From Tubiluchus corallicola (taxonomy: Eukaryota; Priapulida; Priapulimorpha; Priapulimorphida; Tubiluchidae): DNA of 64,000 nt. The notes beneath the pieces were generated by a model, which was not told the DNA's origin, did no database searches, and was given only the letters and a program-made list of their open reading frames with translations. How positions within the stretch are numbered: position 1 is the stretch's first letter; each line of letters opens with the position of its first letter. A program made the position numbers and the translations under genes. The stretch is taken from contig JAQGDQ010000124.1 of NCBI GenBank assembly GCA_030141605.1, positions 129,001 to 193,000 of the forward strand. The letters run 5' to 3'. Shown piece after piece: positions 5,353 through 55,135 of this stretch.

Positions 5353-7680
5353 CTAATTGATAGTGAAAGACCAGGGAAACAATATCAGTCTGTTGCACGG
5401 TCAAGCCCGGGGGCAGATGCTGAAACTGAGCCAACGTCACAGGCACCGGATGATGTTCGAAGTGGTGAGTAAACCATATCGTGCAGGTTACTAGAAAGGA
5501 GCTAGAGGTACATACGCGTGTACGCTGGATCTCGAGATTCATGTAATACCCAGCCGAAATTTTACATTGTCTTGATCGTAGTGTCCTGGAGGGTGACTAG
5601 TAGATATTCGTTTTTCGAAAAAAATGTTTCTGTCCAAGATGTGATCGTGTTTTTCAACGTCTACGTATTATTTGAATGGAAAATCTTTTGAGCAGCGTGA
5701 GTGCATGACGCCAGCAGCATATGTACTGTACTGTAGAATGTAGTGTAGCACTGCATTCTAATTGTATCCATTTGCTTGTTAAAGATAAATGAAACAGAAA
5801 AAAGCTATTTTCAGGAATAGTGTGAGTGAGAGAGAGAGAGAGAGAGAGAGACGTGGCGAACGAAAGAGAGAAGGAAAGACGAGAGTTTGTGAGTGGGAGA
5901 AAGAGAAAAAAATTTGCTGTGTTTCCTGGTAACTGTTATTTAGCTTAAAGAAATTCTTTCACTATCAACTAAGCAGTAATGTTATACCAAACTCAAATTA
6001 GCAACCAGTTATTTATTGCCATTCTGGGTTTGGTTCATTAGTCCTACTGCAGTATAATTAATATCTTCGACTCTGCTACATTATTACTCTGGAAGCTCGC
6101 ATCAACAATTTTGCAATTATTTTTGTTGGTAAAGAATAGCAGTATTGCTTATATTCTTCATGTACCGTAGAAACAAACATGTCGACTTCAATTAACTCTG
6201 TGTTTCTCTTCTAGGTCAAGAAAAAGAAGAGGCTGGAATACGTTCTGCCCTTTCTTCCATACTTCTCTTTTTAACTAGACAAAGTTATATAGCCACTTTG
6301 ATATTAATGATGGTACATACGTTTTTTACATTTTTTTATTGTTACTTTTATAAGAAGAATTGTAGTTGTTGATATTCACAGTTGAGAAATTTGGGAAAAG
6401 GAATGTGAGAAATTTGCAAGGGCAAAGGGTTAAAGACATTTTGACTTTACAGTTTCGTACAAGTTTACTGAAAGGTGAAAAACAAGTGAAAAAAACTATT
6501 TAAATGAAGCTGATTAGGGCGATAATTTCTAAAAGATGTGGTTTATTTTACTTCTAAAAAAATGGGTTTTGGTTTATATATGATGATAGCATAGGACCTT
6601 GTAATCAAACTTGATCAAGAATTTGAGTTTGATCAATAATATTTATGTCAACTGTCTTGTTCAAACTTGACTAACTGCCATTGATGAGTATGTAAACATA
6701 GAGAGCCAAGATCTTGGAAAAAACAAGACGTGTTGGTAAGATCTTTATAGAAGTTGTCACAATTTGCACAATTTAATTGTCTTAGTAAGACAGTAAATTT
6801 CGCAAGTTATTTATCTGACTATTTTAGCAAAATTAAAAGCCGTTTGCTCATTTTTTACTTCACATAGAAGAAAATGGAAATAAAATTGTTTGTATCAATG
6901 GTAAACGAGATGTGAACTTCAATTTTAGCTGCATTTACTCTTTTATTGAACTCTTGTATTGTAATTATGTATTTTGTTTTAGGTATGGAGTATAACTTAC
7001 CACAGTTGGTTGGCGTTTGTCTTGCTTTTGTGGGCTTGTTTTATCTGGTTTACGCCAAACTCCCGCAAGTGGTGCTTAAGAATGTCTCCAGGCATTGTGC
7101 TTTATGCTGAAGCTTTATTAATTATACAGGTCAGTCTATTACACAGATTGAAGCATCATTCAATATTCAGAGACAAAATTCACTGTTTAATGCTTATTCT
7201 TTCATGTTAAGACAAGTCAAAATAGTACTTTTGCAGAAAAAAATGATCATTTTCTGGTTGTGCTTTTTGAACAAAAGTAATGCTGGTTTATTGGAAGATG
7301 AGAAAGTACATTTTCTTATTTTTGAAGAAATAAGGTAAAAACGAAAAACAAACTTTCTTGTCAAAAATAAACAGATATATAAGCAGTAACAAAGTTTATT
7401 AAATTAACTATTTCTATTTCATGGTTTCATTAATTCAAGCTTTCATTTTTAATTAGCTATTTTTATTTCATGGTTTCATTAATTCAAGCTTTCATTTTTT
7501 CTGTATCGTTCATATTAAGTTATTTTATTTGATCTGACTGATAATTCTTTGGTTTCTGTCTAGTTTATTTACGGCTTGAATTTGAACGATGATGAGTTAC
7601 CACTGGAGAAGGGAGAGGTTAGCCTGCGGGAAATTGGCTTTGAGAAATATCAGTATCCCTGCTTGGTGTTGTTTGTAAAG
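5353..7680 (+). CDS. PIEZO: Piezo exons: linker and first blade repeat in window
   Basis: Exons 5353-5464, 6215-6312, 6983-7129 and 7564-7680. The first is hydrophilic (Ser/Pro/Glu-rich linker). The second ends in a helix with [14 protein letters not shown], matching the conserved RQSYVCALIAMM position of Piezos. The third gives [20 protein letters not shown], one of the most conserved blade segments. The fourth ends in [14 protein letters not shown]. They correspond to roughly residues 400-530 of vertebrate PIEZO1. The linker length is peculiar to this species and cannot be checked by homology. Confidence 0.93.
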
Positions 7681-10600
7681 GTTAGCCAATGTTGTTTACA
7701 TTTGTAACCAGTTTACTAGAGCTTGCTGTGACAATGAACAATAATTCAGTGCACAATGGAGGGCTTCGCACTATCAAATTGTTCTGTTTTTATTACGCGT
7801 GTTGTCAATAATGCATAATTTGTTTCTTTGATTTCTTAATTAAATGGTAACTTGTAAATTTCATAATATTCTGCAAATGAAATTGTCATTACGGATTACT
7901 AATTGCTAATGAAATTGTTTTGACGTCTCTTATTAAGAATTTATCTAGTTTTAAAGTTAAATGCAAGCATGTGTGTACCACTCATTTGGTTTGTGATATA
8001 TTTATTTTTCTGTTTGTTGTCAGAAGCCATTTGGAATATTGTAAACTAATTTATTTTGCTGATACTTTCCTGATTAATAATAAACTAAGTAAGAATAAAT
8101 GTAAATAACATACTGTGGACTTTAATCATTACTGAAAAAATAAATCTTAATTTTGTTATTGGTTTTCTCACTAAGTCTGTTTTGTCGTGAGATGCATGTT
8201 TGTATATTCTAGGCTTTTCGACCGTACACCGATCATCTCCAAGAAGTGGGTTAAGGCAATAAAACAAATTCTGTTTAGGTCTTCTCAATGAAATAGGTTA
8301 TTTGTCAGTAAAACAAATAGCAACAGATTTGTGTTAAGGTGTGTGGCATATACCACATCTGTCAAACGACACTGTAAAAAGTAGTGCGAAATAGTTATCA
8401 AAAGAAAATCGAGGTAATAATGTACCACCTACACGGTTTTTAATTTTGTTAGCTAGTTAGCCACGTTAGTAATAGCTGTGTGGCTGTGGCCTTTCCACCA
8501 TTGGTCACCCTGCAAAAAACACATTCCTGACTTTATACTGACCCAATGAGCTAGATTAGCTTAAAATCATATTCTGACGATCGGCACTTTTATTTTTAGA
8601 TACTTATCACTCTGATGTTCTGTGCAACAATGAGACAGTATATGCGGGAATCCAAGTTTGAGAGGCACAGAAAAAGTATGGCAGACCTGCATGCTGTAGA
8701 TATAGCTTTGACAGTTGGCAGTAGGAACAGAGGCACTTTCGGTGAGCACTTAGCTGGTCAAACAGAAGTTGTAATTTTCTTATTAAAAAGTCTAGTACAC
8801 TCATATCTCTGTTTGCCGGATCTCGCTTTTACAGATATCGGAAAAATCGGACAAAATCCTGGACCGTTAGAAAGTCCGGCATATTACAGACACAGTCCAT
8901 TGTTTCACATGCTGACAGCTATTTTGCGGGCTGTCACTTTGTTTACATCATTATATCAGTGTTATAAAGCAGTGTGTAACGACGAATATATAATATTATA
9001 GTGCACAAAAGCGAAGTAAGATGACATTAAGTTTTCATGTTTTAAAGTACTATTTTCGTAAAAGCTCATTGGTCACGCAAAAGTATCTTATTTAAGCATG
9101 TGCAGCAAAAATATAGAGTCAATTATGCGAAGTTGTTTGCGTCAGTAAGCCTTTTCACAGTTCCAGCGACTGATGATGATGGTGGTGAAAAGGTCAAAGG
9201 TTACGTGAACAAGACAGTGCATTTGTGTGGTCTTGCAGCCCATGTTGTAATAGTAACAGTTTAAACAGCTAACTTTAACCTTACCTAGTTCAGTTTGTCT
9301 TGTTCCCAAGCAAGATCCTGCTAGTAAATCACTCTACTCACTGACTAGTGCGTAATTAAGTAAAGTCCTTGTAAAACAACTGAAGTTATTGAACTGGTGC
9401 GAAAGATGGTTTGCTTTACCCACACGTCACGTGACGATTGTAGTTAAAACAATGTTGCTTTTCTACACTTAACCTTTGATCTACAGCAACTGCGCTTGCA
9501 GTCAACGAAACTGTTAAAAGGCTTATTGCTGACGGTTTTTATATACTTCTGCATAGGAACGGTCCGTACTAGATGTTTGTGAGACAATTAAGCGATTGAT
9601 TCTGCATTATCGTGAGTCTAATACACATATCATGAGTTTACTGTATTAGCTTAGTATCGGTAAATACGGACAAATCTGCAAATTCGCACTGATGTCGCCT
9701 CGCTTTTGTCTGTCAAACCGAGATGTGAGTGTATAACGTTTCACGTTGATATGATTAGTAAAGGAGCCCCGTGATTATAATGCTGTAAACTTGACTACCA
9801 TGCAAGGACGCTTAACTTGTACACACATTGTATATTCATGGAAAATATTGCAAGGAAGAGACAAAATATTATGTTTTTTTAATTGCTTCACTCAGAATTT
9901 GCAGATGTCAAGTTTTTAATTCAGGAACTGTTAGTCAGATGTGAAATTTGTCATGATTACTTATAGCAGCAGATTGTTTGAAACAACAATTTATTGTTAT
10001 AATATAGGTTACTTACTAAATTACGAATCGATTAAGTTAGTGAATTCTGATCCGCTGCAGTGATTGCTGGTTTACCATTTCTCGAGGCAAATTCATTGCT
10101 AGGGTTTTTGTTTGGCAAACTCTGGATAAAATACATGTGTAAGAGAGGTAGGCTGTGCTTGTCTTTCTGTCATATTAAGATGAACGGATTTTACTTTGAA
10201 TACTGATTGCTTGTGTACTATTAACCACAGTAACAAATATTGTAACAAATCCAACAGTGTTTATTAGCTGTAGTCAAGAATATGTTTTTTTCATTGAAAT
10301 TTTAGATCATATTCTTCTCAAAATGCCACATATTAATACATTTTTGGCTCCTTTAGCTGAAGTAGAAGATGAACTGCTTGGCACTACAGACAACCTGTCA
10401 GTGACTCGGCTGGGATATTTCCTGCTGTACTTAATTACCAAGTACTGGATATTTGTCTGCATGGCCATGCTTCTACTCATGAGTATCAACAGATATGTAG
10501 TTCTCTACCGCATAGTTTACATGATACTTTTCCTCATATTTATCTTGACTTTCCAGGTAACAACTTACATTATATTTAAACTCTATTGATTTCCTCTAAA

Positions 10601-13600: not shown

Positions 13601-16600
13601 CTCTGTTACAAAGAAAGCTTTTGTCAACGTCTAACCATGTTGAGCTGGTCATGTTAGACATCAGATATTTAGCTACTTTTCTTAAATAAATTTTGAATTA
13701 CGTGTTATATTTCCAGTTTCAGCGCAGTCATAGTGTTTGTGCTACAACTTAGATGCTCATGCCATACTGCAGCCCTATATGCTGCCACACTGCACTATAT
13801 ACATTGTTTTATACATTGCAGTACACAATAGTTCACCATTCAGTGGCAGGGACTAATCAACACAATGTTCCTGGAATGGCCATAGACTGGCTCATTTTCA
13901 AGGATAGTCGTCTAATAGCGACTGCACCTTCTCACTAAAATAAAGATGCTTTAAGCGTAGGGTTTAGAGGCTAGGCAAAAACCTTGCAATGGTTTAACTA
14001 TTACATGATCGTTTAAGGCTTTACCTTAAAACGATTATTTATTGATAAAAACACACAAAAATAGCAATGAAAATCCATATTGCTAAAACCTTTGCACAGT
14101 GGTATTTTCAATTTCAATTTCAATTTATTTATTTCGCATCAATAGTATATCATAGTAACATACATTTAACATCCATATATGTACATCATTGCGTAATTTT
14201 AGTTCAAGTTAACAGGTATAATGATAACAATTATTATAATGATATCTATTGATGATAATACTATTGCAGAAATTCAAGAAGCTTATAATAGCCTGTAAGA
14301 GCGGCTCAATGTGAAATAGAAACAAGGAGAGATTTGCATTTTAGCCATTTGTTTCATAAGCATATACATGGATGATTTGTTAGTAGAGACTGTCAAAGAT
14401 GAATAAAGTTCACAATAGCTGTGCTCAAGTCATTTCATTTTGTGGCTTTATGAGTTTTAAGTGAAATATGTTGTTAAGTTTTCACATTTTCTCAGTTTTT
14501 GCTGAGTGGCATAAAAACTTAAGAGTTTAAAGATTAAATAGTTTATATCAAAATTTACTTTCCTGAGGAGTCGTGCCTGTCAAAGGATGGGACATAGTCC
14601 CAAAATCATCCAAGTGATTGTTTGCTCCATTTACATTTTAAAAAAACTTAAGTTTCAGACAAAGTAAGTTCAGAATTTTTTATTGACGCGTCAAATATTT
14701 ATAGTGGCAAGATGACCATTCACATCGTTATCTCATACAACATCTCTAATATTCTTGCATTCTAAGAGAATTATATCTAATCACATCTGTATCTCTTATC
14801 TGAAACTCTTGCAGGTTGTTGCAGTCAACATTCCTTTTGTCTTTGTTGCCGTGGTTTTTCTCATGTTACGACCTCTGCAGCAGTTTCTCTGTCACTGCTA
14901 TGCGCTATGGATAAGCATTCTTATTATAACCAAGATGATTTTTCAATTGCAACAGATCAACAGTACGGCCATGGATTATAATTGTACGGTAAGTTTGCCA
15001 GATTTCCAACAAACTTGCCGCCATTGCCACACTTACAAGTGCAACTAAACGTCCTGTTAGAAGGCTGGGTAGATTTGCGAATGATGCTTACTTTCCTCTC
15101 TGTTAGTGGATATTGATGATTTATTTTTATTTAGCCATAAATATTAATCTTTAGCTTGTGTCGTTATAGCATTTTGTTCCATTTGTTGATTGTCAGAAAG
15201 TATTTTAGTATTTAAAAAATTTATTTATCTTTGAATACTGCTTGCCGCATTCATGTAATATAAAATGGATCCTACTGCTAAACGAAAAGTACGATTACCG
15301 GGCATTTATGGCAAATACATGCCAACCTAGAGGTTTTGAGTTCGACTCCCCCTCGTTTCAACATTTGTTAGCAATTTATTACTTGAACAGGACTTCTTAG
15401 CCATCTTCATAAACCCGATCAGCCTTAATTGAATACTTGGTCATATCTGGGGGAAGACAGGCAGCAGAACCACAGGGTGGGAAACCGTGCTACTTCTTCA
15501 CCTGTTTATGAAAAGTAAATGCAGCATGTCATTTAACCTGTAAGGCGGGTTCTGTATGTTTAAAACTCTGTTTATAATAGAGATTTTTTGTACTAATAAA
15601 GTTTATAAAAATTTTCTTACATGGTTTTTCTTTTTCAGAGTTCTGCAGTATTTAATGAGACTATAAATATGGGAGAATGGATTGGTCTGGAAAAGACGAA
15701 AGAAATTGACTTTTATTTGAAGGTACATTATATAGCACTTCCTGCAAATTTGCTACAAAATTTTGAAGTCGTGAAAAAACAACAGAACTTGGTGTTAGTC
15801 AGTGGTAATGTAACAGAGAAGAGAAGGGTGATATTTTTATCACATTTGTGTAGCAAACTGAACTTCAAAAGCTAAGAAATTTCAATCTGTGAATCTTATA
15901 CATTTAAATTTTTGCTTGACTTACTAAAAATTGTGGTTCTTGAAGTGCCTTAAATAATTGCCATTAGTAGTGCTTTGATTCAGTCAATTAGGAAGTATAG
16001 ACGGCAACATATAGATGACACTTGTAACTATGAATAACTTTTTTAACTTTTTTGCCAGGGCTACATAGCGTCAATAATTATCCTTTCATTGCAAGCAATT
16101 GTGCGACATAGACAGCATCACATGTTGTACGTGTTAAAGATTCCTTCGTCACCAGAGGGCGTGGTGTTTCGTGATATCACACGTGAGAGAGCTGACGACA
16201 ACTTGGTGTCGTGTGTTAAATACGTAATCAACTATTGCTTCTATAAATTTGGACTTGAGGTATGTACATTTGTGGTTTGGATTTGAAGTAGTTCTCTATT
16301 TTTTCAAACAAAAGTGACGTATTGATGTTTTAAGTAAAGCGTTTCATTATGCCTAATTAAACATCACATTACGTCATAATTGTTATACAAAAGTACACAC
16401 ATCTTTGATTAGCAGTAGTATGGATTGCATCTGCCACCATAGTGAGACCATTTCTTGATTTCTTTGTACAGAGTTGGTCCTGGACATGCTGTGCACGCCG
16501 CGTCTCGGTGACCATGTACTGTGTAATTATCAGCTAATCCCTGAAAAATATTAATCTTTTTGTTTAGAATAAAGAAATGTAATTTTAATCTTTCCATAAT

Positions 16601-19600
16601 ATTGCCCTTTTTGTGTTTTAAGTAAACACCATATTGTGTATTATTAGTTTTTTCTTTTGTAGTAAATGGCCTTTTGTACAGGGTATCTCAGATTAAATTT
16701 TATCATGATACTATTATAGTCACACTTACAATATGATTATAGTACAAATGTGAAAGATACAAATATGTGACTATCAGTAATTTGTATACCAGCTTTAAAC
16801 AAGTTTGGCTTACGTGCAACAAACCGCACTGAATCCAATCTTGAGCTGCTTTGATTGCCATTTGACTAGGAAGCTCCTCCTCAAATTTGCCAGTAAACAC
16901 AATGCCATATGAGTGAGTATTATAGTGATATGTGTGTGAGCCAATTGTATTCCAGCCTCTTCCTTCGTAAATGCGACCATCCCCTCCTACGAGCCAATTA
17001 TATGCTATATCCTGCCATCCTGCAATGGAAAGAACCTTAATTTTGCAACAAAGCGTTGAATAATTTGTGAGGTTTATATTGGCTGTAGAGTGTAGATTGT
17101 GTTGTATAATTGAAAGGTCTGATTATAAAGACAACGTTTATTTACTGTCGCTCATTTGACAGACAACATCAGCACTAATAACTGTTTAGCAACTTACACT
17201 TACATCATTGCAGTAAGGACAATGCACATAAGTAGCAAATAACATGTAGGTATATGTCCTGACGTTGGCAGCCGGTAGAGTCGAACTCAAGACTGCATTG
17301 TTGCAGTCCGAAATCTAGACCACTCGGCCACCCAGCCCAGGACTATCCGGTGGCTTCTGTGCAATAATTTATGCATATACATTTTCTTAAGTTTCCAGTG
17401 AAGTAAAGAGGTGCTTATAACAAGCTTAATTTTTTTATTGAGTTTTAGTAGTTGCTATACACTTCATTTTTTGTTTATTTTTAATCATACACAGCAAAAT
17501 GTTTGAGAAATTGGAACAGATGAACTAAGACTTAAGAATTCTTTTAGTCAAGTTGAATATCTTAAAGGGACAGTTTCACTGGTAGACTTCATCTCATTTC
17601 TGACATGAGCAATTCAAATTCAGTATTTGCGCAGCACTCTCTAATTATTATTTTTTAACTTCATCTTAAGGCCATATTGTTCAAAGTTGTTTGTGTAATC
17701 TCTATCAATCAGATGGCGAAATCTTATATTGTCAAAGTCTTCCACAGGTCATTATATTAATGGTGACCAATTTTTGTACGACATGTTGTAGACTACAATG
17801 TATGTCCAGTCATAGTCTAGAACATGTATTAATGTTTTTGAAAATAAATTACTACTACTGCTGCTACTATTACAGTTAAAACTTAAGCCCCAAAATAATT
17901 CTTAGACTGCTTTTGACTTATAAATAAAATAAATAATAATTTTATTACCTAAAATTCATATAAAATGCTCTATGATGTACAAACACTTAAAATTTGCAAG
18001 AAATCTACAAACAATATTTTATAGACCACAATTACTTATAAATTTCAAAGACTAACTCTACTGCATTATGCAGACACAAACTTGAATAACAAAAAAGTTA
18101 AAAAGCTCCTAAGAATAAAAATGTTTCAATTTGATGTTTAAAAACAGCAATATTTTGGAAGTTTTGCACATACTCATGAGCAATTCTCGTGCCACAGCTT
18201 GCCAAAGTTAGAGAAAAGTCTAAAAAAAATAGACTGCGGTGTGTATGCTGACTTAGAGACTGCATTTATTAGAAATATCTTTGAAGCTAACATTATGCTT
18301 TGAATGGTGTCTTGTCTTGAAAAGATCTTAAGAAGATGAAATAATCACTTGACATACAAATTAGTTCTTTCACTGACCAAGCACAGTCATGTGGTATCGT
18401 TGTATCTCTTGCATGACTGTAGAACACGTACTAGTGTTATAGCAGCTTTTTCCTCCTGTATGATGAATTATAACTTTAGTCACCACTGCATCCAAATTCG
18501 ATACTGATACTGGAGGTTTTCCGCCCCATTCATTTCTTGTAATATAATTGTCACAATTCACGTCACCTAAAACATCACCATTAGAAAAGGGGATTATAAA
18601 CATAAAAGCTATCCACAAAAGCAGTTTTTTTATAGTCATTTTTGCTGCAACATTTAATGTGTATGCCGTGCAGGCTTGATGTTTACATACTAATTGGTAA
18701 TACAGCTTAAAGCGAAGTATGCTTTCTCACCTGTTTGGGTTACACGCTTCCTTATCTCTTCTGCTGTAGCTTTAGAATCTTGTGTACACTAGAGTACAAT
18801 ATGCCAGGGGATACTTATTGTCGCATTATGTTGCTAATTTACTTTAAAATGAGCAAACACTAATTGTATTTAAGCACCACTATTCTTTAGCTGACATCCT
18901 TTCGTGTTAAAAATTCTGCTGATAATATTTAAATTTACTTTCACTGATTTCACCACCGAACCTGATATCTTTTATTTTTTATTTATTAACACTCAGTTGC
19001 AATTTGCAGATAGTGCACAAACATATAACAACACAACACTGTACATTACAACACAATAAAATATTGCTTTAAGAATAAATAAAATTTTTGAGTGTTGGGG
19101 AGACACAAAGAGAAAAACTGCTTTCATATGTCTTTTATGTTTGAGAAAATTATCAAGGTCAACTAAACACAAACTTTTGCGGAATAATTTAACATTTGCT
19201 GCTGTCACAATTGAAGAACCATTCACAGAATTTGGAAGTGAATTCCACATGTGAACAATCCGGTTAGAAAAAAATTGTCCAAACTGCTTTTTATTTGTTC
19301 TTTGTACAAATATTTTTAACAAATGGTTACTCAATTGATATGTCTCATTAATTTATTTTTTATGTTTGTATATTGTAATTTGAAGTAATTAATTAATACT
19401 GAGAAACTAATTGAGAGCTAAACACCAGGAACTGGTATATTTCTGAAAAATTCTTGAAGAAGAGCAAGCGTGTGATGTCTGATTTGTTTTCTTATAAAGA
19501 AGTTAGATACAATTACTTTTTCTTATTATAATTTATTATAATGAATGTCTGGAATTCTGTATGAATTTTAGGACTTTCATTATGTATCATTTTGAGGGAA

Positions 19601-22600
19601 AAATCGTAAGTTTAGAGGGATCTGTGTAATTATTTATTTTCTGTGATATTTTTTTACGCAGATATGCTTTGTAATGACTGCAATAACTGTCACTGTACGT
19701 ATGGATATATACTCTGTTGTCTATCTCATCTGCCTCGGCATATTCCTCTTCGTCAACAGGCCGATCGTGCGAATGTTGTGGCCGATATACGTTATATTCT
19801 TAGGCATTCTGTTACCTATAGAATATTGTCTGTGCGTTGGATTACCAAAGTTCCTTTGCATAGGTAAATGTGTGCTTTAATAACTTTGTAATGTCTTACT
19901 TTCTTGCTTGTTTGTAACTTCTATGTATCTAAATTTGTTTGCTACTATTAAGATTCTAAAATATGTGCAGAATGAGGATCCGTTGACGTCAGGTGAAAGG
20001 GTCAAGGATGCTGCACATCGGGTTGTTTTTTCGATTATAACTCAACTCCTTCTAATTGTATATAAACTTCTTTGTGTCTTTGCTTGTTGTTAATGTCAAT
20101 TTTAGTTTAGAAGAATTTATTTTTCGCTCGCATAACTACTGACTGAGGGGAGCTCTGTGTGCATATTTGCTACAAGTTGAAAACTGTATGGTTGGTTAAT
20201 TCATATATGTATATTACTTTTTATTAGTTTTTATAAACAAGCCATTTAACGAATTCGTATTTTATCTATTAACACTTTTTCAGAATATCCCTGGGCTGAT
20301 AACAGTACGGGCAGTACTATGGAACCAGCTCTGAGGGAGTGGCTGTATTTGCCAGATTATCATGAGCCAATTAGGGCAACTGTACTTATAGGTAAGCACT
20401 GTTTTTTCCATTAATTGCTTCAAACAAGTCATCAGGCATTCCGTGTAATTGGCTTTGCATGGTTAATGGAACAGTAAAGTTTCTGAACTGTGACTCTAAA
20501 TGATTCTTTTGAATTGTCTGGGGTAATTTTGTTTGTAGTTGTGCTTAAATGTCTTGCCCATGTACGCAGTGAATTAAAAGCATTTGTTCTGTCAATCAAG
20601 CATGGCATTTGCACCGCCAACAAAGTAGTCTCATCAGCTTTTAGGGTGTTAAATACAAATCCACTCTCGCATACTTAGTTCTATGCACAGCACTACTAAC
20701 TCTCCAAATAAACTGTTGCTTCTCCAGATAATCTTCCTATACGACATTTTAGAACTTGCAAGTGTGGTTTGGTCGTTTAAGCACTGACTAGATTAGTTCC
20801 AGATGTTGCTTATGTGACTGGGTTCAACATGAATATTAGTAACTTCATTTTAGGTTTAGCAACTTTCTCCATTGATTTTTCAGCCATGTTGTACAACTTG
20901 TGAACTATTTTTTATTAAAACACGAAATGCTGCTATCTGCTTACCATTATCAACTGTACATTATTTATTTTATAACAAATAATTAAAGAACGTGTAATAT
21001 TTAAAGCATTTGAAGCTTATCGTAATGCATGTACAATTAATACAGTATGGTTAAAATATATTTTGACAAACGGTATAAATAAAAAAGCATTTAAATTTGC
21101 TTATTTACAGTAGATTAACAATTCTTCTTTACTATGCTATCAAACTTTGCCAACTGTGTTAAAAGTACTTTATCAAATTGTTTTTTCTCTGAACGTATTT
21201 TATTTAGTTATAATCCTTGGTATACAGTTATACATATACTGATTAATAATACCTTTGGCAGTATTGCAAAGAAAAGAATTACAAAATATGGTGCATGGCT
21301 ATTAAGTGTTAGTAATGTTTAAATAAATATTAATGTTAAATTAGTAATACTACATACGATCAATTGATGAAAAGATTTACTTAAATTTCATATAGTCTTG
21401 GATAGTTTGAAACAATGTAACATTTTGGTCCCGGTTTAGTTGAGAGGATCCGAAAAGAACTTTCGAAATTTTAAGTTGGTTACTCAAGTTATTTAAATTA
21501 AATGGGAAAACATTTTGTTGACATAGCTGGGTTCGTTTTTCCTCAAGGTTCATTCTACTAGCTGTATATAGGAGACACTCGAGCAAGTAATGGTGTCAAC
21601 TAAGCTGCCAGTTTTATCTCCTCTGCATCCGTGCGGGAGGACCACAAGTGCAGTTTGGTTGAACTAAGCTCCCAGTTCTATCTCTGCGTCTGTGTGAGGG
21701 TCCACAAGTGCAGTTTGGCTGTACTAAGCTCCCAGTTCTATCTCTGCATCCATGTGAGGAACCACAAGTGCAGTTTGGCTGAACTAAGCTCCCAGTTCTA
21801 TCTCTGCGTCTGTGTGAGGAACCACAAGTGCAGTTTGGCTGAACTAAGCTCCCAGTTCTATTTCTGCATCCGTGCGAGGAACCACAAGCGCAGTTTGGCT
21901 GAACTAAACTCCCAGTTCTATCTCTGCATCCGTGTGAGGAACCACAAGTACAATTTGGCTGAACTAAGCTCCCAGTTCTATCTGCATCCAGTTGAGATCC
22001 TGATCTAATTGAGAAAAACTGACTCTCACTTGAGTATGTGGAACTGCTCCTAGATGAGAGCCATGTATATAATATGTTGGTTGGTTAAAAAATTTAGATA
22101 CTATTTGTACCTGCTGCAAAATGTGTCGACGGAAGGAGAGTCTTGTAAAATTTGGCAAATTATTCCATTCATTCACGGACACAGGAAAGAACTAGTATTT
22201 AAAATAGTTACATCTGGTACGATACAAAGCAAAATCGTTTCTGTTATGCAATGAATAATCAAGTAGATCACGATTTACAATTGGCAATATTTCAAATAAA
22301 TACAATGGTGTTTATTGATTAACAATTTTATAAAACATTTTGATTCTGTGAAATATACGTCTTTTTCTGTGTTTAATAACATAACCCATTTGTTATTATT
22401 TTTCAGCTGATTTTTTCCAATTTTTGTTTGCTGTTCAGCAATGGGCTGTATTTCGAATTGAAAAAACGTCGACAGCTTATGCCGGTGGTGACAACAGTAA
22501 GATCAGTCATCGACCACAAAATAATCCTACAAATGATTTTGTTGGCACTGGGTAAGTTTTGCCGAATCTTGTTGTAGTGTAGTTCATAGTTTTTATAAAT

Positions 22601-53065: not shown

Positions 53066-55135
53066 CTATCTGATAGCAGTGCTAACATTTGGGTGCTGAT
53101 TGTAGCCTGCAGTTCTTATGTATTCATTACACTCTGTGTTGATGACATGTAAATCTGCTGCACTCAAATCTGACGACCAGTTCTCGGAGCGCAGTTTCAT
53201 CTCGGAGTTAGCAACCTCATTTCTCTCTCTCATTTCATAATCTAACCAAACTTTCAGCTGATCTGTTTCTTGGAGACCTGTAAATCGTAGCAGCTTTTTT
53301 CCCGTGCCAACAGGATCCCTGTCTAGTTCCTCATAGCGTAGCAGCATGTAGTTGTTGGGATACTTGCTGGCAATTACTTTGCTTGTTTCCAACTCTTCTA
53401 CCATATATCTGCACAAATCTGAAACGTCTGAAATAAGTTTTGTACTGCCTGCTTTTGCACGACGAAGCCATCCTCGAGGGTCACGGATGAGGTGTACGAC
53501 TCTAACATCTATCAATGGGTCATTAAATAATGGAATCACGTCTATTAGTTTGGCACGTATGGTTTTAATCGCCACGTGTTTGTACATCTGGCATAATTCT
53601 TTATATTCGGTGTGATTCGTCACCAAGGCTTTTGCAACCGGACTCAAACAGACGTTCAAACGTCCGAGTTTTTTCTTCCCTTTCGTTCCACGAGGAGACA
53701 GTGGGCCTGTCAGGTGACAGTATCTCTCTGCATGATTAACATTGATAAGAGAAAGTTGCATTAGAGCCAGCGCCTGTTTGTAATGCAGTGGCAGTGGCCA
53801 GAAACCATTAGGTTTACACTGTACAGCATCAGCGAATATCATAGATTTCACTTCACTCAAAACTGATGCATTAGTTTTTGCTTGATCTATTAGGTCTTTC
53901 ATGTCTCCACCTGTTTTTCTTGCCATTTCGTCTAACCAGGTAAAATCTGGCGCTAGTGTCCTCATATTGAACCCTGCGTGTAAAGGCTCGTATATGTAAG
54001 ACACGTCGCCATGGTTATTGAAGAAGTTCCCGGTAAATGTTGATCCGGAGTGAAATCGACTTAGCACAATTATTCCCTTCTTTCTAGATGTCAGGTGATC
54101 TGAGAGACTCAACTGACCTAGTTCTAAGTGGTATTCTTTATGATTGTTCTCTTTTAACAAAAGGCCTCCTGCTATTTTTGCAATATCTGCAAAGTAAAGT
54201 CCAGACAACTTTAAACAGGCTTTATGGACCGTAATATTTTTATGTAGAACGCTGTTAGAATAAATACTTGTTAAAAAAAGTAAACACCAAAATATTATGA
54301 CAAATTATCATGTCTAGTTGACAGTTTTAGGTTTTATAAGTTGAACTAAATTAAGAATGAAAGACAGCGTAGCAGATATACCACTAAAACATGTTTATTT
54401 ATTAACTCGAAATTATTTTATGCTCTGATTTTCATGCATTTAAAAGTTTAGAATAAGACAAACAATCGTTAGGCAGCAACACTAGAGTGCATAAAATGAT
54501 AACAATCAAAGTTATTTTATTTACAAGGCAATTTGATTTTGTAAGTAAGCCTGAGTAAGGTCTGCTATCCTTATTACAGTTGCCTTTAACAGTTGTGTGA
54601 ATTTTATTCTCATTCCGCGATGTTCTTTTATGCTTTTATAGTTGTGAATATCGATTTTTTATGGCAAATAAAGATTATTATATTATATTATATTATTGTG
54701 AAAACAGCTTATAATAACTATTTTAGCAAACAAAAGTCTAAACACGTTAGTTTTTGCATTGATATGAAAAAATATTAATCCTTCATTTCTTATTATCATT
54801 TTTTACTAAAGTGTTGGACAGAACACGCCAGAAATTACTTGTGGCGTATTAATTGATTATCTAAAACACTCAGTGTGCACTAAAGTAAAGATGTTTTGCA
54901 TGTTTTTATAAGCACGGAATTAAGTCACAAGAAACACGGTTTCTGTTCGTAATAAAAAATAAAATAATTCAATAACTTTCAGCTTACCGTGATTAGAAAT
55001 ATTTTCCTTTATTTCTACTGGAAAATCATAGTACTTGTACACATACAAAGCAAACGAACAGAAGAACAATCCGACGGCAACTCTCACAGTATGATTTTGA
55101 GTGGTAGACATTGACATGACTTGAACATTCTTCAT
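53066..55135 (-). CDS. carbohydrate sulfotransferase, CHST1/3/5/7-like
   Basis: Two coding exons on the - strand: 55135-54988 and 54186-53066 (148+1121 nt), 422 residues. Transfers sulfate from PAPS to sugar hydroxyls in the Golgi. The N-terminus is a short cytosolic tail, a single anchor (VRVAVGLFFCSFALYVYKYY, type II) and a stem. The 5'-phosphosulfate-binding motif is SRFHSGSTFTG, followed by the family's YIYEPLHAG. The 3'-phosphate motif is VVHLIRDPRGWLRRA. Length is usual for the family (about 390-480). Start: the 1,143-base open frame reaching 54208 begins with TTG, not ATG. The TTTGCAG acceptor before 54186 joins in phase 1 to CACG|GTAAGC at 54988. Of three close ATGs I took the first (55135). 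The exact sugar acceptor cannot be read from sequence. Convergent with Piezo. Confidence 0.92.

What the first reader, a model, noticed from the sequence alone, without database searches (positions are those of the whole stretch)
16260..19661. Complete PGRP immune gene nested antisense inside a Piezo intron
A 3.4-kb Piezo intron holds an entire three-exon secreted PGRP on the other strand, with signal peptide, intact splice phases and a full catalytic set. Seen: both gene structures and their strands. Inferred: opposite transcription may couple or interfere with expression of the two genes.
Basis: partly seen in the sequence, partly recalled or inferred. Interest (0 to 1): 0.65.

Follow-up and report, generated by a model that had tools for sequence, protein, structure and literature searches.

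The report
Immune gene nested inside Piezo intron
In an unidentified invertebrate-type animal genome, a complete gene for a secreted enzyme that cuts bacterial cell wall sits backwards inside one intron of the touch-channel gene Piezo; the arrangement is real in this assembly, but genes nested in introns are common and nothing yet shows that the two genes influence each other.

Summary
The + strand carries the animal's only detected Piezo gene (about 60 kb). Its 3,402-bp intron 16260-19661 joins ...YKFGLE to ICFVMT... in phase 0, and the joined protein aligns continuously to vertebrate Piezo1. On the - strand inside it lies an intact PGRP: coding exons 18639-18378, 17019-16814 and 16540-16409, 199 aa, all GT-AG, introns in phases 1 and 0. 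It has a signal peptide, the complete zinc amidase set (His59, Tyr94, His167, Cys175) and Gly88-Trp89-Arg108, which points to DAP-type peptidoglycan. The locus is single-copy in a 343.5-Mb assembly. At least four related PGRP genes lie on other contigs, about 40-60% identical per exon, so this is an old family member. Two of them keep the signal peptide in a separate exon; the nested gene has it fused to the domain exon. One concrete handle: no AATAAA/ATTAAA lies between the PGRP stop and the Piezo exon 149 bp away, so the mRNAs may overlap, though such a gap is expected by chance. Verdict: real but ordinary nested gene pair, apparently unreported pairing.

The parts
16260..19661 (+). Piezo host intron (phase 0), 3,402 bp, donor GAG|GTATGT, acceptor ACGCAG|ATA
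16059..16259 (+). Piezo exon 5' of the intron ([10 protein letters not shown]...YKFGLE), 67 codons
19662..19863 (+). Piezo exon 3' of the intron ([15 protein letters not shown]...LPKFLCI), followed by DYPW... at ~20286
15639..15721 (+). Next Piezo exon upstream ([28 protein letters not shown]); the nearest canonical poly(A) hexamer for the antisense PGRP lies in it at 15717. Exact first base of this exon not determined
18378..18639 (-). PGRP coding exon 1: signal peptide [21 protein letters not shown] plus start of PGRP domain with zinc ligand His59
16814..17019 (-). PGRP coding exon 2: Trp89, Tyr94, Arg108 (codon of Gly88 is split by intron 1)
16409..16540 (-). PGRP coding exon 3: His167, Cys175, stop codon
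18644..18731 (-). Candidate 5'UTR splice: exon ending at 18731 (ACAG|GTGAGA) and exon beginning at 18644 (TTGCAG|CAAAAATG), five bases before the ATG
   Evidence: consensus only
18566..18571 (-). TTTTAG|GT at the phase-1 position where paralogues C2286, C163 and C466 have the acceptor of their domain exon; here the frame stays open upstream into the signal peptide
18977..19332 (-). Repeat with many copies (LINE 3'-end-like [20 protein letters not shown], judged by eye), about 74-86% identical elsewhere in the genome
17919..18169 (.). Second interspersed repeat, inside PGRP intron 1, ~80% identical copies elsewhere
17127..17344 (.). Third interspersed repeat, inside PGRP intron 1; one end looks tRNA-derived by eye (SINE-like); no tRNA gene or Rfam match called

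Best explanation
This is an intact, independently promoted, secreted N-acetylmuramoyl-L-alanine amidase of the animal PGRP family, nested on the opposite strand in an intron of the single Piezo gene. SHOWN: open spliced frame with correct splice sites and phases, signal peptide, all four catalytic residues, both conserved disulphide pairs (Cys29-Cys152 and Cys66-Cys72), single-copy locus, intact Piezo frame across the intron. INFERRED from family knowledge: the protein is secreted and uses Zn2+ held by His59, His167 and Cys175, with Tyr94, to cut the MurNAc-L-Ala bond, preferring DAP-type peptidoglycan (Gly88-Trp89/Arg108). INFERRED on origin: an old DNA-level duplicate of the PGRP family (it keeps the family's two domain introns, so it is not a retrocopy) that came to lie in the Piezo intron, with transposable elements landing around and inside it. 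INFERRED on regulation: each gene has its own promoter. Piezo transcription crosses the PGRP in antisense, but Piezo splicing removes it. Any mutual effect is incidental interference rather than dedicated coupling.
For: PGRP identity. Splice joins and phases. Catalytic and specificity residues mapped on BbtPGRP3 (His121, Tyr156, His230, Cys238; Gly150-Tyr151/Arg170; disulphides Cys91-Cys214 and Cys128-Cys134) from the phmmer alignment and PMC4610682. Piezo continuity. C77:118984-179012 is the only place over cut-off for both Piezo models. Locus single copy, only three repeats shared. PGRP family on other contigs with the same two domain introns. Signal peptide beyond chance. Opposite-strand nesting is common (PMC3786989 abstract: intronic genes about 6% of the Drosophila complement).
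Against: No expression data, so transcription of the PGRP is not shown. No TATA or kappaB-like site on the PGRP strand in the ~1 kb upstream, which is weak evidence either way. TTTTAG|GT at the paralogues' acceptor position leaves a minor chance that the annotated signal-peptide exon is really intron end.
Confidence: 0.85

Rival explanations
1. Functional coupling: antisense transcription or overlapping mRNA ends link Piezo and PGRP output, for example mechanosensing and barrier defence, and selection keeps the nesting.
For: The PGRP stop codon is only 149 bp from a Piezo exon. The nearest AATAAA/ATTAAA on the PGRP strand is at 15717, beyond that exon, so the mRNAs may overlap by 201 nt or more.
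Against: Gaps this long are expected by chance (P about 0.6 for 149 bp, 0.31 for 350 bp, 0.09 for 691 bp). Variant hexamers exist at 16348 and 16300. Opposite-strand nesting is the ordinary majority case, and mammalian nested pairs show no extra expression divergence.
Confidence: 0.06
2. The PGRP has hidden 5' exons: the true signal-peptide exon lies upstream, perhaps beyond a Piezo exon so that the genes are interleaved, and '[24 protein letters not shown]' is the pyrimidine-rich end of an intron read by accident.
For: Paralogues C2286 and C163 have a separate signal-peptide exon (MLKAFILLLSTLCLVAGF, MLKAIAILLCAVCVTIDF), and three paralogues have a phase-1 acceptor exactly where the nested gene reads TTTTAG|GT.
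Against: Only 2 of 1,736 other AG|G junctions are preceded by such a signal-peptide frame. No convincing upstream signal-peptide exon with a phase-1 donor was found up to 24,000. A good 5'UTR splice pair leads directly into CAAAAATG.
Confidence: 0.12
3. Misassembly: an unrelated PGRP contig was joined into the Piezo intron.
For: The assembly has places elsewhere that need checking (C1820/C1833 bacterial-animal boundary, palindromic C163).
Against: Piezo runs in order on one strand on both sides across 60 kb of a 574-kb contig. There is no N in the window. Intron repeats are ordinary genome repeats, and the block has no second copy.
Confidence: 0.03
4. Pseudogene or retrocopy.
For: None found.
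Against: Introns retained, all frames open, all catalytic residues and cysteine pairs kept despite about 40-60% identity to paralogues.
Confidence: 0.02

Closest known systems
Short catalytic animal PGRPs; nearest solved relative amphioxus BbtPGRP3 PGRP domain (PDB 4Z8I/4ZXM)
   Same: Amidase_2/PGRP domain by sequence, zinc ligands and catalytic tyrosine, two disulphides, Gly-(Trp/Tyr)-Arg DAP-type signature
   Different: No chitin-binding domain; extra C-terminal cysteines (..GGRCNPYYC); signal peptide in the same exon as the domain start
Other PGRP genes of the same genome (C2286, C163, C2229, C466; C548 fragment)
   Same: Homologous domain exons with introns at the same two places
   Different: C2286 and C163 have a separate signal-peptide exon, and C2286 carries two Cys-rich modules between signal peptide and PGRP domain; whether these genes are nested was not determined
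Opposite-strand nested protein-coding gene pairs, e.g. Drosophila 2mit in timeless2 (PMC3786989) and human/mouse nested pairs (PMC8467205)
   Same: Complete internal gene within one intron of a large external gene, opposite strand
   Different: The pairing Piezo/PGRP; no paper in the held library has PGRP, Piezo, nested and intron together

Membership tests
Animal PGRP (catalytic, short/secreted type) | PGRP/Amidase_2 domain | tested here: met
   Pfam PF01510 70.3 bits over cut-off 26; 33 PDB sequences, PGRPs at the top
Animal PGRP (catalytic, short/secreted type) | Zn ligands His, His, Cys and catalytic Tyr | tested here: met
   His59, His167, Cys175, Tyr94 align with His121, His230, Cys238, Tyr156 of BbtPGRP3
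Animal PGRP (catalytic, short/secreted type) | Signal peptide, no transmembrane segment | tested here: met
   [21 protein letters not shown]; simple hydropathy/charge test, 2 of 1,736 other junctions as good; no dedicated predictor was run
Animal PGRP (catalytic, short/secreted type) | Amidase activity on peptidoglycan | not testable with these tools
   Needs recombinant protein
Group II (DAP-type) PGRP | Gly-Tyr/Trp motif and Arg at specificity positions | tested here: met
   Gly88-Trp89 and Arg108 align with Gly150-Tyr151 and Arg170; Trp in place of Tyr, accepted as Group II from general knowledge of insect PGRPs
Nested opposite-strand gene | Internal CDS wholly within one intron of the external gene | tested here: met
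   CDS 16409-18639 inside intron 16260-19661; full transcript ends (UTRs) unknown
Nested opposite-strand gene | Both genes transcribed | not testable with these tools
   No RNA data available
Piezo channel gene (host) | Piezo TM region and cap domain in one gene on the same strand | tested here: met
   PF24871 and PF12166 exons on C77 + strand 118984-179012; local alignment to Piezo1

The most novel reading that the evidence does not exclude
The PGRP mRNA runs antisense across at least one Piezo exon, the nesting is conserved in the lineage, and it makes peptidoglycan-amidase output and mechanosensor output mutually dependent. In addition, the PGRP's signal peptide was captured from what is intron sequence in its paralogues.
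Probability: 0.03. Interest if true: 0.6.

Novelty: new member of a known kind. Interest (0 to 1): 0.22.

Why it matters
It is a clean, annotatable case of an immune effector gene lodged antisense in a mechanosensor gene. It matters mainly for annotation (unstranded RNA-seq would mix the two genes) and as a datable nesting event if relatives are compared. It would matter more only if coupling or conservation were shown.

Tried and rejected
COX1 search to identify the animal found nothing, and the 18S search failed on the server. Genome-size paper searches did not identify the species. No paper has PGRP + Piezo + nested + intron. No tRNA gene (ARAGORN) or Rfam match in the window. kappaB-like and TATA sites on the PGRP strand upstream of the gene: none. 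Retrocopy rejected because the family introns are retained. Recent duplication rejected (about 40-60% identity to paralogues). Structure prediction was not run because the spliced protein is not read letter for letter from the DNA. Whether the paralogues are nested too was not resolved: their flanking open frames were listed but not scanned.

Full report
Setting. The window is C77:129001-193000 of a 343.5-Mb, 2,344-contig animal assembly. It is AT-rich (about 34% GC) and contains no N. I could not name the species: no COX1 match was found, the 18S search failed and paper searches on assembly size did not help. Best protein matches in the PDB are to an amphioxus PGRP and vertebrate Piezo1, but the PDB is too sparse a sample to place the animal.

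Host gene. The exons flanking the claimed intron read [10 protein letters not shown]...[10 protein letters not shown] (16059-16259) and [18 protein letters not shown]...LPKFLCI (19662-19863). Joined with their neighbours they align continuously to Piezo1 across the junction (E 2e-45). The intron is 3,402 bp and in phase 0. The Piezo_TM1-24 and Piezo_cap models find one confident Piezo gene in the genome, on this contig and strand, spanning C77:118984-179012. The three other TM-model hits, on other contigs, are below the curated cut-off.

Nested gene. On the minus strand the coding exons 18639-18378, 17019-16814 and 16540-16409 splice with GT-AG sites in phases 1 and 0 to a 199-aa protein. It matches Amidase_2 and PGRPs of known structure. 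I mapped residues by hand through the alignment to BbtPGRP3, using the residue numbers in PMC4610682. Zn ligands are His59, His167 and Cys175; catalytic Tyr94; disulphides Cys29-Cys152 and Cys66-Cys72; specificity residues Gly88, Trp89 and Arg108, the DAP-type (Group II) pattern. All are present.

Is the signal peptide real? This was the one point worth doubting. Paralogues on C2286, C163 and C466 begin their domain exon at a phase-1 acceptor 8-11 nt before the first domain cysteine codon. C2286 and C163 carry a separate signal-peptide exon (MLKAFILLLSTLCLVAGF, MLKAIAILLCAVCVTIDF); C2286 also has two Cys-rich modules in between. The nested gene reads TTTTAG|GT at that same place (18566), so its signal peptide could have been intron sequence misread. 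I scanned 1,737 AG|G junctions in the window and paralogue loci. Only three, including this one, are preceded in frame by an ATG with a charged n-region and a hydrophobic core. A good splice pair (ACAG|GTGAGA at 18731; TTGCAG|CAAAAATG at 18644) leads straight into this ATG. I found no better upstream signal-peptide exon. I therefore favour a three-coding-exon gene whose signal-peptide intron was lost or absorbed, with a minority chance of hidden upstream exons.

Copy number and age. The intron block occurs once in the assembly. Only three interspersed repeats inside it recur: 17127-17344, 17919-18169 and the LINE-like 18977-19332. PGRP relatives on C2286, C2229, C163, C466 and C548 are about 40-60% identical per exon in most cases, with introns at the same places. 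The nested gene is an old family member that moved or arose at DNA level; it is not a recent copy or a retrocopy.

Relation of the two genes. The PGRP stop codon is 149 bp from a Piezo exon. The nearest AATAAA/ATTAAA on the PGRP strand is at 15717, inside the next Piezo exon upstream, so exon overlap is possible. Variant hexamers at 16348 and 16300 would avoid it. Gaps of this size are not unusual in this window (P 0.09 for 691 bp, 0.60 for 149 bp). Nested genes are frequent and mostly on opposite strands: 74.3% of simple human pairs and 77.8% of mouse pairs (PMC8467205); intronic genes are about 6% of the Drosophila complement (PMC3786989 abstract). Coupling is therefore an untested hypothesis with low prior.

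Conclusion. The arrangement is genuine in this assembly and the PGRP looks functional. It is an ordinary kind of genome architecture with a pairing that I could not find reported. Conservation in relatives and stranded RNA data would decide whether it deserves more.

Noticed in passing
G000:C1820:910000-945000 (L043, L039, L044) and G000:C1833:55000-80000 (L040, L046): Bacterial DNA (FeoAB at up to 62% identity to Bacteroidia, HU-like protein, RNase G-like, Mu-like portal, DUF6046, prophage-type amidase, Mutator/IS256 transposase) lies next to animal retroelement-like ORFs in a 975-kb contig, and the same boundary recurs in a second contig. Either a large lateral transfer from a Bacteroidota associate or a shared misjoin. 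Part of the region is withheld as N.
   Followed up: partly
G000:C11:38000-48000 (L041); C886, C1700, C1191: Further prophage-like amidase matches; C11 is densely coding and bacterial-looking, so the assembly contains bacterial sequence.
   Followed up: partly
G000:C163, L036 region around 7450-8300: A ~63-bp tandem array repeats the acceptor and first codons of a PGRP domain exon (GTAATGGCCAGTGTAACTATGTGACAAGAGCACAATGG), giving many potential micro-exons or decoy acceptors; the contig also carries two PGRP copies in inverted, palindrome-like arrangement.
   Followed up: no
L033:3612 and 5178 (G000:C2286): Two Cys-rich modules (..GWC..C..GLCP..IKCC) between signal-peptide exon and PGRP domain of a paralogue: a probable multi-domain PGRP.
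   Followed up: no
window 21604-22084: Minisatellite-like stretch further along the Piezo gene, open on both strands (repeats of [15 protein letters not shown] on +, [17 protein letters not shown] on -).
   Followed up: no
window 53066-54304, - strand: Single-exon 412-aa frame resembling a carbohydrate sulfotransferase, just 3' of the Piezo gene on the opposite strand (judged by eye).
   Followed up: no
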